Shown here: piece by piece, positions 3,177 through 6,975 of the stretch
Numbering within the stretch: the first letter of the stretch is position 1
Layout: the number at the start of each line of letters is the position of its first letter
Source of the DNA: Bacteroidota bacterium
GTDB taxonomy: Bacteria > Bacteroidota > Rhodothermia > JANXDC01
Length of the DNA stretch: 64,000 nucleotides
Assembly: GCA_025998875.1 (NCBI GenBank)
Contig: AP024675.1
Span: 62,001-126,000 of the forward strand
Direction of reading: 5' to 3'
Made by a program: the position numbers and the translations under genes
The notes under the pieces: generated by a model
The model's input: the letters and a program-made list of their open reading frames with translations, nothing else
Databases searched by the model: none
What the model was told of the DNA's origin: nothing

Positions 3177-5648
3177 TCAGATGGCCGCCGATGCCTCTAC
3201 GGGCTCCCGCTGGGGCGGCAGGGGGTGCGCCTTCTGCTGACGCAGTTCACCCCACCGGCGCAGGATGGAGAGCGCAAACCCGGCCATGAGCACCACGGTG
3301 CCCAACCAGAGCAACCCGATAAAGGGCTTCTCGTGCACCTCTACCAGCACCCAGGGCACCTGTCTAGGACCCTGCGCGCGGAGCACGGCCTGGCCCTGAT
3401 CAACGTTCATGCCCTCGAACCAGAGCGTCACGTTCCACTCCGGCACCCCGTCGGGAAGAAAACGCTGCGTTCGATCGCGCAGGATCAGGTACACGGGCCG
3501 GAGCGTGCGCACCTCACCCGTGCCCGTATGGGTGAGCTCTACGAGCGCGGCCACCGCGATGTCCACCTCTTCCTCCCGAAGATCTTCCGGCAGGCGCAGC
3601 TCGCCCTCGGCCCGCATGGGTTCAGGGGCCTTGAGGATCTGGAAGCGCGCAAAGCGGATCCGGTATGCCCCGAGCCGCTCTTGCTCCCCACGGCGGAGCA
3701 AAAACCGATGCGTGGTGCTGTCTGTATCCTCTTCCTCAGAGCGCAGCATCCAGTCCGGCACCACGGCCACGTAGAGATCCCGATCCCAGAAACTGACCAC
3801 ATCGGGATGCTGGATGGCTTGGCCGTTGCGGCTCCGGTAGGCGCTGGGCTCCAGGACCACGGATCGGCCCCGGGGATCGGTGATCGCGATGCGGTAGAAG
3901 GCCTCTCCCCGACGCGGCTCGACGCGCTGCCCCACGTAGGCGATCCGATACCCCGCCACCTGCCGCTCCTCGCCCAGATAGAGGGGAAAGTGCTTGGGCT
4001 GCACATCCCGATGCGCCACGTGCGGATCGTTCGGATCTCCGAGCAGGATGCCCTCCCCCGGAGGCACAAGCGTGCGATCATGGCCGGAAGAAGAAACAAT
4101 CCCGAAAAGCACCAGGGCCATTCCGATATGGGCGATGGCGCCACCGGCCAGACGGGGATTGCCCCGAAAAAGGCGAAGCAGCACGCGCGCGTTGGCGAAA
4201 AAGGCAAAGGAAGCCCCCAGAATCAGCAGAAGATAGCGCCCCTCCCGCACCCCCGCCGCCCACAGGGCCAGCGCCGTAACGGCCGCGCTCAGCATAAAGG
4301 GGACAAAGAGCGCGCGCACAAAGGCCCGGCCATCCATGCGATACCACCAGAGCAACTGTCCGAGCCCGATGAGCAGGCCCAGGGCGATGGCCAGGGGCAG
4401 AGTCCAGCTGTTGTAGAAGTGCATATCCGGAGGGGCCGGATTGTCCCGAAACAGCCTGCCTAGAATGGGGGTACTTGTGCCCACGATGATCACCATGGCC
4501 ATGGCCGAAAGCACCATGGCGCCCAGAAACAGCACAAACTCCCGGCTCAATAGCGCCGGATCCTGCTTCGGTCGGGGTAGTTCGCGGAAACGGAGCACAA
4601 AAAACCCCAGCCCCAGCCCCACCACGGACAGCATCCAGAGCAGCAGCTGATTGTATAGCCCCAAATCCACAAACGAATGCACGCTGGCATCGCCCAGAAT
4701 ACCGCTTCGGGTCAGGAAGGTGGAGTAGACGACAAAGGCAAAGGCCAGCATAGGAAGAAGCAGAGCGGCCTTAAAGCTCGTCCCGCTGCGGCGATAGGCG
4801 ATCATCACGTGCACGGCGCCGGCCGCCAGGAGCCAGGGCACCAGAGAGGAGTTCTCCACCGGATCCCAGGCCCAGTAGCCGCCGAAAGAGAGCGTGACAT
4901 AGGCCCAGTAACCGCCCAAAATGATGCCCGCGCCCAGAACAAGCGTGGCAAAAAGCGTCCAGGGCAGCGCCGGACGGATCCACTGCGTATAACGCCGCGT
5001 CCACATACCCGCCACGGCGAAGGCGAAGGGCACAACCATGGCGGCAAACCCCACAAAGAGCGTGGGGGGATGAGCGGCCATCCAAGGGTTCTGCAACAGA
5101 TCATTGAGCCCGTTGCCGTCCTCCGGACGAAAGCCCGGATTGTTCTGAAAAACCGGAGCGTCAGGGAACTTCTCTGCCAGCAGGAGAAAGGGGCTACTGC
5201 CCACGCTGATCGGACCCAGGCGCGCGCCCACGATCATGGAAAGGAGAAACAGCTGGCTCAAGGCTACCACGGCCATGACGGAAGCCTCGAAATCGCGCGC
5301 CGTACGCCAGAGCGCCCACCCGATAAGCCCCTGAAAGAGGGCCCAGAGCAGGAAACTCCCCTCCTGTCCGGCCCAGAAGGCGGCGATCACATACAGCAGG
5401 GGCAGCTCCCGTGCGGTGTGCTGATAGACATAGGCGTATTCAAAGCGCTGCTCCAGCAGCAGATACCACAACAGCGCCGAAGCGCCCCCAAGCCCCAAGA
5501 GGGAAACCGACCAGGCCGCTCGGCCCCAGCGCCGCCAGGCATCCGCCCACACAGGCTGCCGCACGGCCTGCCAATAGGCATAGCCGGATACCGCCGTTGA
5601 GACAAAAGCGAGCTTGATGAGCCCGCTCCCCCAGAATCCGATCTCCAT
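3177..5648 (-). CDS. ccmF: Cytochrome c maturation heme lyase CcmF
   Basis: Large polytopic membrane protein (823 residues) that attaches heme from holo-CcmE to apocytochrome c on the periplasmic side. The tryptophan-rich heme-handling WWD segment GGYWAWDPVEN begins near residue 256, and the family motif FWAGQEGSFLLW lies near 92-103. Hydrophobic segments continue to about residue 510, followed by a soluble periplasmic region (about 530-770) and a last membrane helix near 780. GGAG lies 7 nt before the ATG. It sits directly after ccmE in the ccm operon. Confidence 0.95.
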   Translation of the reverse strand: MEIGFWGSGLIKLAFVSTAVSGYAYWQAVRQPVWADAWRRWGRAAWSVSLLGLGGASALLWYLLLEQRFEYAYVYQHTARELPLLYVIAAFWAGQEGSFLLWALFQGLIGWALWRTARDFEASVMAVVALSQLFLLSMIVGARLGPISVGSSPFLLLAEKFPDAPVFQNNPGFRPEDGNGLNDLLQNPWMAAHPPTLFVGFAAMVVPFAFAVAGMWTRRYTQWIRPALPWTLFATLVLGAGIILGGYWAYVTLSFGGYWAWDPVENSSLVPWLLAAGAVHVMIAYRRSGTSFKAALLLPMLAFAFVVYSTFLTRSGILGDASVHSFVDLGLYNQLLLWMLSVVGLGLGFFVLRFRELPRPKQDPALLSREFVLFLGAMVLSAMAMVIIVGTSTPILGRLFRDNPAPPDMHFYNSWTLPLAIALGLLIGLGQLLWWYRMDGRAFVRALFVPFMLSAAVTALALWAAGVREGRYLLLILGASFAFFANARVLLRLFRGNPRLAGGAIAHIGMALVLFGIVSSSGHDRTLVPPGEGILLGDPNDPHVAHRDVQPKHFPLYLGEERQVAGYRIAYVGQRVEPRRGEAFYRIAITDPRGRSVVLEPSAYRSRNGQAIQHPDVVSFWDRDLYVAVVPDWMLRSEEEDTDSTTHRFLLRRGEQERLGAYRIRFARFQILKAPEPMRAEGELRLPEDLREEEVDIAVAALVELTHTGTGEVRTLRPVYLILRDRTQRFLPDGVPEWNVTLWFEGMNVDQGQAVLRAQGPRQVPWVLVEVHEKPFIGLLWLGTVVLMAGFALSILRRWGELRQQKAHPLPPQREPVEASAAI

Positions 5649-5660
5649 CGGGTTTCTCCG

Positions 5661-6062
5661 TTACATAGAGGTTGTGCTGCGCCCGCTGGCCACCTGATCG
5701 TTGTACTTCGAAGGGCACTTGATCAGAATGCGATCGGCGTAGAAGATCCCCTCCTGCATGCGCCCTTCGACCACGATCCGCTCCGCATCTTCGAATCCGG
5801 CGGGCTTGGGTCCTGCGTAGACGACGCGGCGAAGGTTGCCCATCTCGTCTCGCATCCAGAAGCTGAACTCCGCACGCGCAAGATCGAAGCGCGTGCCGCG
5901 CTCCGGTACCCAGAACCCCACCACATGCGCGCGCGCCCCGGAAGATTCCGCCCGGGCGAAATCCATGTATCCGCCCACGCTTTTACCGAAGTTTACCAGC
6001 AATAGCGCGGTAAAACCGGCCGCGATCACCCCGCCGAGGGCGAGCTTAATTGTACGCCTCAT
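5661..6062 (-). CDS. ccmE: Heme chaperone CcmE, Cys-type variant
   Basis: Periplasmic membrane-anchored heme chaperone that passes heme from CcmC to CcmF. It has one N-terminal membrane helix (about 5-25) followed by the OB-fold domain, 133 residues in all. The usual covalent heme ligand is a histidine in an HxxxY motif. Here the equivalent segment reads LIKCPSKY, giving C116-x3-Y120. Cys-type CcmE proteins of this form are known from archaea and some bacteria. The ATG at 6062 was chosen because the TM helix begins immediately after it; an upstream extension in frame has no such character. It overlaps the small ccmD-like gene by 17 nt. Confidence 0.9.
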   Translation of the reverse strand: MRRTIKLALGGVIAAGFTALLLVNFGKSVGGYMDFARAESSGARAHVVGFWVPERGTRFDLARAEFSFWMRDEMGNLRRVVYAGPKPAGFEDAERIVVEGRMQEGIFYADRILIKCPSKYNDQVASGRSTTSM

Positions 6063-6294
6063 CCTCGACCTCCGTGATTTTTGCCTGCAATCGGGGGATT
6101 TCCCGCTCCAGAAGGCGCATGCGCCGCTCCAGATGCAGCAGAAACAGCACAATACCGACCCAGATCAGCAGCACCACCCCGAGTACCACGTAGAGCTTTC
6201 CCTCGCTGAGCATGGTTGCCTCGAAGGCGGAGGGCGCCAGGCGCCCGGCAGCCAGCGTATCCCAGGAAACCAGCGTATCGGAAACCATGGGCAT
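6046..6294 (-). CDS. CcmD-like small membrane protein
   Basis: An 82-residue protein with one strong transmembrane helix (about 35-54) followed by a charged, coiled-coil-like tail with an LERRMRLLER segment. This is the architecture of CcmD-family proteins, which stabilise the CcmABC complex and help release holo-CcmE. It lies between ccmC and ccmE, the usual place. The ATG at 6294 has AGGAAGG upstream. An internal ATG at 6213 would give a 55-residue protein closer to typical CcmD length, so the start is uncertain. Confidence 0.75.
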   Translation of the reverse strand: MPMVSDTLVSWDTLAAGRLAPSAFEATMLSEGKLYVVLGVVLLIWVGIVLFLLHLERRMRLLEREIPRLQAKITEVEDEAYN

Positions 6295-6297
6295 GAT

Positions 6298-6975
6298 TCA
6301 CCCTTCCTGCATGCGATATCGATGCGCTTCCAGCAGACGACGAATGCGTCCGTGTCGATAGCTGAGCTCGAAGAGCCAGAAAAACAGCCCCAAAAAGCCG
6401 ACCACGGAGGCGTAGAAAACGATCCGCATCTGGGGAGCGGTGATCTCATCAAAGGCCGGATTGCCCTCCGCGCCGGGATGCAGGCTGGGCAGCTGTCGGG
6501 GGATGATGAAGAGCAGAAACGGCACCGTGACCAGGGCCAGGGCCGCGTAGACGGCGCTCAGGCGAGCGCGCCGGCGCTCCTCCTCCACCGTGCCCCGAAG
6601 GGCAAAATACGCCCCGAGCAACAGCAGCTGAGCCAGGGCGAGCGTCTGCTTGGGGTCCCAGTTCCACCACGCCCCCCAGGTAAAACGCGCCCACAGGGAC
6701 CCCGTTAGCAGCCCCAGGAGCCCGAAGAGCGCAGCCACCCGGGCGGCGTGTTCGGCCTTCATATCATCCTCGATGCGGCCGCGCACCAGGTACCGCACCC
6801 CATAGAAAACCGAGAGCGCAAATCCGAACACCATGACAAACCACATGGGCACATGGAAATACAGATTGCGCGCCGTCTGTTCCAGAATGGGCAGATCGGG
6901 CACCGGCACAAGAAAGGCGGCCAGGAGCACGGCCGTCATCCAGAGGATCAGGATCTTCTTCCAGAAAGCCCGCAT
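6298..6975 (-). CDS. ccmC: Heme exporter/CcmE-loading protein CcmC
   Basis: Integral membrane protein that presents heme to CcmE. Its 225 residues form about six transmembrane helices. The WWD signature WGAWWNWDPKQT is at 100-111, and flanking histidines (FHVPMW near 41, SLHPG near 166) are candidate heme ligands. It starts 8 nt after ccmB ends and its stop is 3 nt before the ccmD-like start, so it is a tight operon member. Family and role are well supported. Confidence 0.95.
   Translation of the reverse strand: MRAFWKKILILWMTAVLLAAFLVPVPDLPILEQTARNLYFHVPMWFVMVFGFALSVFYGVRYLVRGRIEDDMKAEHAARVAALFGLLGLLTGSLWARFTWGAWWNWDPKQTLALAQLLLLGAYFALRGTVEEERRRARLSAVYAALALVTVPFLLFIIPRQLPSLHPGAEGNPAFDEITAPQMRIVFYASVVGFLGLFFWLFELSYRHGRIRRLLEAHRYRMQEG

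What the first reader, a model, noticed from the sequence alone, without database searches (positions are those of the whole stretch)
5661..6062. CcmE with Cys in place of the heme-binding His
The heme-binding motif reads C-x3-Y instead of H-x3-Y. Such variants are known from archaea and some bacteria and go with an altered System I. The heme bond chemistry must differ, and the partners CcmF and CcmC here may be adapted to it.
Basis: partly seen in the sequence, partly recalled or inferred. Interest (0 to 1): 0.5.

Follow-up and report, generated by a model that had tools for sequence, protein, structure and literature searches.

The report
Cysteine-type heme chaperone CcmE (System I*)
This bacterium loads heme onto its cytochromes with a known cysteine variant of a carrier protein that is the rule among its sampled relatives, and partner proteins of the same pathway carry shared changes that I did not find described.

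Summary
In detail: CcmE at 5661-6062 (-) has Cys116-Pro-Ser-Lys-Tyr120 where E. coli CcmE has His-Asp-Glu-Asn-Tyr. It is neither an error nor rare: each of the 107 CcmE-positive genomes among 158 sampled from its phylum carries exactly CPSKY. This is the published 'System I*', known from archaea, Desulfovibrio and others. As in System I*, the own genome has no recognisable CcmH, and no ResB, yet encodes CXXCH cytochromes.

Their heme ligands are unchanged (CcmC 154 of 154, CcmF 119 of 119). Differences lie elsewhere. (1) CcmF's last periplasmic domain is about twice the usual size in 119 of 122 complete proteins; profile comparison and a model suggest a duplicated 'beta cap'. (2) CcmA, unlinked here and outside the window, has Asn for the switch His in 104 of the 107 genomes; six CcmA from elsewhere have His, two of them beside a Cys-type CcmE.

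As given: an ordinary member of a known variant. With its partners: a mildly interesting phylum-wide version.

The parts
5661..6062 (-). ccmE, 133 aa, Cys-type (CPSKY)
   Evidence: Pfam CcmE 5.2e-12; model matches CcmE structures
5715..5717 (-). [quoted passage not shown]
   Evidence: read from the sequence; aligned with E. coli CcmE sequence and with 107 phylum CcmE
5703..5705 (-). codon of Tyr120, expected axial ligand of the heme iron
   Evidence: sequence; role recalled from HXXXY in E. coli as given in PMC9616876 passages
3177..5648 (-). ccmF, 823 aa, heme lyase with all four ligand His kept
   Evidence: Pfam Cytochrom_C_asm 1.8e-27 and CcmF_C 8.3e-19; ligands
3321..4079 (-). enlarged last periplasmic domain of CcmF (residues 524-776), probably two beta caps
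   Evidence: length; model pLDDT 89.8; halves match each other and the single cap of other CcmF; VIA Z 10.8 to CcmF 6zmq
6046..6294 (-). ccmD (CcmD_alt family)
   Evidence: Pfam PF20077 7.4e-10
6298..6975 (-). ccmC, ligand His and WWD motif kept
   Evidence: Pfam Cytochrom_C_asm 1.4e-21; TIGR01191 4.7e-25, below its cut-off; residues
6984..7661 (-). ccmB
   Evidence: Pfam CcmB 3.7e-14

Best explanation
The gene is ccmE of a System I* cytochrome c maturation pathway, in a ccmB-C-D-E-F run. CcmC, with CcmAB and CcmD, loads heme onto Cys116 of CcmE at the end of the OB barrel, probably as a thioether, with Tyr120 as iron ligand. CcmE brings the heme to CcmF, which joins it to CXXCH of apocytochromes. 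No CcmH is recognisable, so CcmF does this alone or with an unrelated helper; its enlarged, probably doubled periplasmic cap is the best candidate for handling the apocytochrome. Shown here: gene identities, the motif and its invariance in the sample, unchanged CcmC/CcmF ligands, no recognisable CcmH, CcmI or ResB in the own genome, the enlarged CcmF domain, Asn in the CcmA switch. Inferred from published System I* work: covalent heme on the Cys. Inferred only: what the doubled cap and the Asn switch do.
For: CcmE identity and fold. CPSKY in 107 of 107 CcmE-positive genomes of 158. ccmB-C-D-E-F order in the window and in many phylum loci. Own genome: CcmH none at E <= 0.001, CcmI none, ResB none, six PF13442 matches in five frames with CXXCH. 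CcmC and CcmF ligands kept. Published: Desulfovibrio Ccm with Cys-CcmE and no CcmH or CcmG makes cytochrome c in E. coli and binds heme covalently (PMC3601427 section 8); C120A of M. acetivorans CcmE carries no heme (PMC9084895 passages).
Against: Nothing biochemical is known for this protein here. CcmG is undecided: five thioredoxin-type matches, none over the TIGR00385 cut-off, so the reducing partner is open. PMC3601427 says about one third of bacteria with the Cys type do have CcmH, and two Bacillota plasmids here show both, so Cys does not require loss of CcmH. One phylum CcmF without a recognised CcmH (L042, genome G014) has a single cap, against the cap as a necessary substitute. A CcmH too diverged for PF03918 cannot be excluded.
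Confidence: 0.8

Rival explanations
1. CcmE here carries heme without a covalent bond, with Cys116 and/or Tyr120 as iron ligands, so that no stable thioether has to be broken.
For: Breaking a thioether is chemically awkward, as PMC3601427 section 8 notes. Nothing measured here excludes it.
Against: Covalent heme on the Cys was shown for Desulfovibrio, as reported in PMC3601427, and C120 of M. acetivorans is needed for heme-stained CcmE (PMC9084895). The motif is the same.
Confidence: 0.08
2. Cys116 acts mainly as a thiol, exchanging with the apocytochrome or a reductant in the place of CcmH, while heme is held elsewhere on CcmE.
For: The own genome lacks a recognisable CcmH, and Cys116 is the only Cys of the protein (translation).
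Against: Two Bacillota plasmids carry CPSKY together with an annotated CcmH. In E. coli the residue at this place holds the heme.
Confidence: 0.06
3. The Cys is a sequencing error or the gene is decaying.
For: None found.
Against: Same five residues in 107 of 107 genomes; open frame inside a conserved gene run.
Confidence: 0.01

Closest known systems
System I* (Desulfovibrio; CcmABCEF of Methanosarcina acetivorans)
   Same: Cys-x3-Tyr CcmE, here in its commonest form CPSKY (25 of 36 in PMC3601427 section 8); no recognisable CcmH in the own genome; CcmB, C, E, F present.
   Different: CcmD present, as in Desulfovibrio and unlike archaea (PMC9084895). CcmF in one piece with an enlarged cap, while M. 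acetivorans CcmF is split (PMC9084895). CcmA has an Asn switch; the CcmA and CcmF of Desulfovibrio and Methanosarcina were not seen here.
System I of E. coli (CcmABCDEFGH)
   Same: Homologous CcmA-F; CcmC and CcmF heme ligands kept.
   Different: HDENY against CPSKY; CcmH present in E. coli, none recognised here; CcmA switch His against Asn; CcmF cap 105 against 253 residues by the same measure.
System II (CcsB-CcsA / ResBC)
   Same: A beta cap over a WWD/P-His site and a synthase without CcmH (PMC10663686 passages); the second CcmF cap copy aligns with CcsBA 7s9y, Z 8.9, 3.8 A, 91 residues.
   Different: No ResB in the own genome; heme is expected to arrive on CcmE rather than through a channel (inference).
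Bacillota plasmid Ccm of Cytobacillus firmus and Metabacillus sp. B2-18
   Same: CPSKY CcmE.
   Different: Annotated CcmH present, short CcmF cap (99 residues), CcmA switch His.

Membership tests
CcmE family | matches the CcmE profile over its curated cut-off | tested here: met
   46.4 bits against 24.6
CcmE family | OB-fold domain after one N-terminal membrane helix | tested here: met
   model pLDDT 89.2, helix 2-26 then strands; CcmE structures at E 1.5e-5 to 9.8e-5
Classical System I | His-x3-Tyr in CcmE | tested here: not met
   Cys116-x3-Tyr120
Classical System I | CcmH present | tested here: not met
   no PF03918 match at E <= 0.001 in the own genome; the same search rings in E. coli and three other control genomes
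[quoted passage not shown]
System I* | CcmH absent (usual, not universal: about a third of Cys-type bacteria have it, PMC3601427) | tested here: met
System I* | CcmG absent (Desulfovibrio) | tested here: inconclusive
   five TIGR00385 matches, best 49.6 bits against a cut-off of 123.15
System I* | CcmA, B, C, E, F present | tested here: met
   B, C, E, F in the window. CcmA at C1:142850-143479: 116.2 bits, below the TIGR01189 cut-off of 131.6, but orthologs L113 (146.6) and L117 (135.4) pass it and orthologs lie beside ccmB in 21 other loci
System I* | covalent heme on the Cys | not testable with these tools
   needs biochemistry
System II | ResB/CcsB present | tested here: not met
   no PF05140 match in the own genome at E <= 0.001

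The most novel reading that the evidence does not exclude
Bacteroidota run a rebuilt System I in which CcmF alone is the cytochrome c synthase: a duplicated, CcsB-like beta cap takes the place of CcmH in holding the apocytochrome, heme arrives on a cysteine of CcmE, and CcmA drives the cycle with an Asn switch. It would be a natural form between Systems I and II.
Probability: 0.25. Interest if true: 0.65.

Novelty: new variant of a known kind. Interest (0 to 1): 0.38.

Why it matters
The Cys variant is known, but what replaces CcmH, and how a stable Cys-heme bond can be used and broken, are open. A phylum sample with uniform CPSKY, hardly any recognisable CcmH, an enlarged CcmF cap and an Asn-switch CcmA gives a clean comparative set, with named cultured strains (Pedobacter, Gracilimonas), to test both. 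It also widens the picture: the review section I read names delta-proteobacteria, chloroflexi and firmicutes among Cys-type bacteria, not Bacteroidota.

Tried and rejected
1. 'ccmA is missing beside ccmB in the phylum': wrong. My pattern demanded LSGG, while CcmA has S-[ST]-G. With a profile ccmA stands beside ccmB in 21 loci; in the own genome it is unlinked.

2. 'The Asn switch goes with Cys-type CcmE in general': rejected; Cytobacillus and Metabacillus have CPSKY and a His switch.

3. 'Adapted heme ligands in CcmC and CcmF': not seen.

4. 'No CcmH at all in the phylum': softened. One genome (G116) passes the PF03918 cut-off and four match below it. Four of the five were read: G116, G066 and G132 (L032-L034) are zinc-ribbon proteins with two Cys-rich repeats, G076 (L035) looks like a histidine kinase; G047 was not read.

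5. Q-loop: the usual Gln place is Pro in 104 of 104 phylum CcmA, but it is not Gln in the control CcmA either, so I do not build on it.

6. Weak points. Of the 51 CcmE-negative genomes only 5 best CcmA-like matches were read (all His; frames of 304-343 residues); the other 46 were not. The scores of the two groups overlap (lowest Asn-type 157.6 bits, highest His-type 166.0). Three CcmE-positive genomes (G022, G064, G081) gave no strong match, and their best matches were not read. Foldseek gave no match with E <= 0.001 for the CcmF domain (best CcsBA 7s9z, 0.01), and no Pfam family matched the window domain. hhalign puts the first cap copy nearer to the control CcmF (96.7 against 93.4), VIA aligns the second, so which copy is the original is unsettled. 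hhalign against the single Natronorubrum domain gave nothing. Two CcmF (L191, L197) are broken over two frames and 35 incomplete or short pieces were left out of the length count.

7. Errors on the way: one search read minus-strand loci L001-L031 unturned, mended. In one search the switch column is one off for Metabacillus and Pseudonocardia; the sequences show His. In one search the stretch for G012 was a wrong place and gave nothing.

8. Comparison with Desulfovibrio and with chromosomes of other Cys-type phyla was not reached.

Full report
Observation. The frame 5661-6062 (-) starts at an ATG (6062) and codes for 133 residues. Pfam recognises CcmE, E 5.2e-12. Its motif reads ILIKCPSKYND; Cys116 is codon 5715-5717. 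The matching stretch of E. coli CcmE, from NC_000913, is VLAKHDENYTP. A model on 23 relatives (pLDDT 89.2) finds CcmE structures at the top of the PDB search (8ce8_E 1.5e-5, 1lm0 9.2e-5, 1j6q 9.8e-5), and the Cys follows directly on the last barrel strand (106-115).

Surroundings. On the same strand lie ccmB, ccmC, ccmD (CcmD_alt family), ccmE and ccmF. The genome is one contig of 2.35 Mb, completeness 100. Some 'same class' genomes have contigs of exactly the length of named records: G155:C37 and Gracilimonas amylolytica NZ_PQBS01000037.1 (560,937), G092:C146 and a Rhodothermales MAG (16,378). So the class is very probably Rhodothermia and the phylum Bacteroidota in the GTDB sense, which includes Ignavibacteria.

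How common. Of 158 genomes drawn from the phylum, 107 have a CcmE match. All 108 matches were fetched and read: 107 have CPSKY, one per genome, and none has His at that place. The 108th (L112) is a second copy in G062 that ends before the motif. They were chosen by the motif, so they say nothing about its frequency.

Partners. CcmH (PF03918) has no match in the own genome at E <= 0.001; in the sample one genome passes the cut-off and four match below it. Four of these five were read: three are zinc-ribbon proteins with two Cys-rich repeats, one looks like a histidine kinase. In the own genome ResB is absent, CcmI absent, a DsbD-type protein present, CcmG undecided. Cytochromes to be matured exist: six PF13442 domain matches in five frames with one or two CXXCH each.

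CcmC and CcmF heme sites. In 154 of 154 CcmC the E. coli ligands H60 and H184 and W114 and W119 are kept, and in 119 of 119 CcmF the four ligand His. Both sets were filtered for complete proteins of plausible length; they include the window and named loci that were found through the CcmE motif.

CcmF cap. By one measure (from TM-His2 + 16 to the last membrane helix) the last periplasmic domain spans 253 residues in the window protein, against 99-108 in E. coli, Vitreoscilla, Cytobacillus, Metabacillus and Pseudonocardia. Of 122 complete phylum CcmF, window included, 119 measure 206 or more. Of the three shorter, two (L191, L197) are broken over two frames, and one (L042) runs intact from a single cap into the last helix, in a genome without a CcmH match. 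The window domain models well (pLDDT 89.8), as strands whose order appears twice. VIA-align puts the second copy on CcmF 6zmq (Z 10.8, 2.2 A, 93 residues) and on CcsBA 7s9y (Z 8.9, 3.8 A, 91 residues) and 7s9z (Z 7.2); the next row is at 3.5. Foldseek alone is not significant. PMC10663686 (passages read) describes a beta cap over the active site of CcsBA and notes a similar beta structure in CcmF. The archaeon Natronorubrum, with no CcmH annotated in the 24-kb plasmid stretch I saw, also has a long domain (214) but without detectable similarity. A doubled cap as a CcmH substitute fits this but is not shown, and L042 speaks against strict need.

CcmA. ccmA is not in the window. The own copy lies at C1:142850-143479. 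It scores 116.2 bits, below the TIGR01189 cut-off of 131.6, but orthologs in its class pass that cut-off (L113, L117), and orthologs stand beside ccmB in 21 other loci (L037 and L183 seem to be one genome). A profile of 23 such proteins was run over the 158 genomes, and the best match was read in 109. In 104 of the 107 CcmE-positive genomes it has Asn at the switch position, with the Walker B Glu intact; for the other three (G022, G064, G081) it was not read. In the five CcmE-negative genomes read it is an ATPase with His. CcmA of E. coli, Vitreoscilla, Cytobacillus, Metabacillus, Pseudonocardia and Natronorubrum have His. PMC10457321 (passages) lists the E. coli stretch with LTTHQP as switch I of the nucleotide site. 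PMC7756269 (passages) reports that in site 2 of ABCC1 switch-His mutants lose transport, except Gln and Asn, which keep it. So Asn is most likely a working substitute kept by selection rather than decay.

Mechanism. Published work on Desulfovibrio and Methanosarcina (PMC3601427 section 8 and PMC9084895 passages; the primary Desulfovibrio paper PMC2906280 was not held) reports covalent heme on the Cys of CcmE and cytochrome formation without CcmH. By homology the same is expected here. How the bond is broken and what handles the apocytochrome remain open.

Novelty. The Cys variant is known: PMC3601427 counts CPSKY in 25 of 36 and names delta-proteobacteria, chloroflexi and firmicutes. My ten paper searches listed no paper that by its title or abstract start treats the CcmE type of Bacteroidota, a doubled CcmF cap or the CcmA switch residue. 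I saw listings only, apart from the passages and the section named, and the library holds openly licensed papers only, so this is weak evidence of absence.

Noticed in passing
G000:C1:142850-143479 (L283; L237:3947-4636), outside the window: The own CcmA-like ATPase is unlinked from ccmB-F and has Asn (ATNIPEE) where ABC ATPases usually have the switch His; the same in 104 of 107 CcmE-positive genomes.
   Followed up: yes
L042:5372-7402: CcmF of genome G014 has a single periplasmic cap that runs straight into the last membrane helix, unlike its relatives; a natural test case.
   Followed up: partly
L372:12001-12456 (Natronorubrum bangense plasmid NZ_CP031306.1): Haloarchaeal CcmE with neither CPSKY nor HxxxY: it reads LTVRAHEGEHPDDHPD, perhaps HxxxH.
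   Followed up: no
L032, L033, L034: Proteins with a zinc ribbon, a membrane helix and two Cys-rich repeats that PF03918 (CcmH) matches weakly; possibly remote CcmH-like domains in a few genomes of the phylum.
   Followed up: partly
L112:3740-4075: A second CcmE-like protein in genome G062 whose frame ends just before the heme motif.
   Followed up: no
L287:10784-11281 (Cytobacillus firmus plasmid): Annotated CcmH with an unusual Cys spacing (CTDSMTADYC) beside a Cys-type CcmE; the Pseudonocardia protein has CPVC.
   Followed up: no
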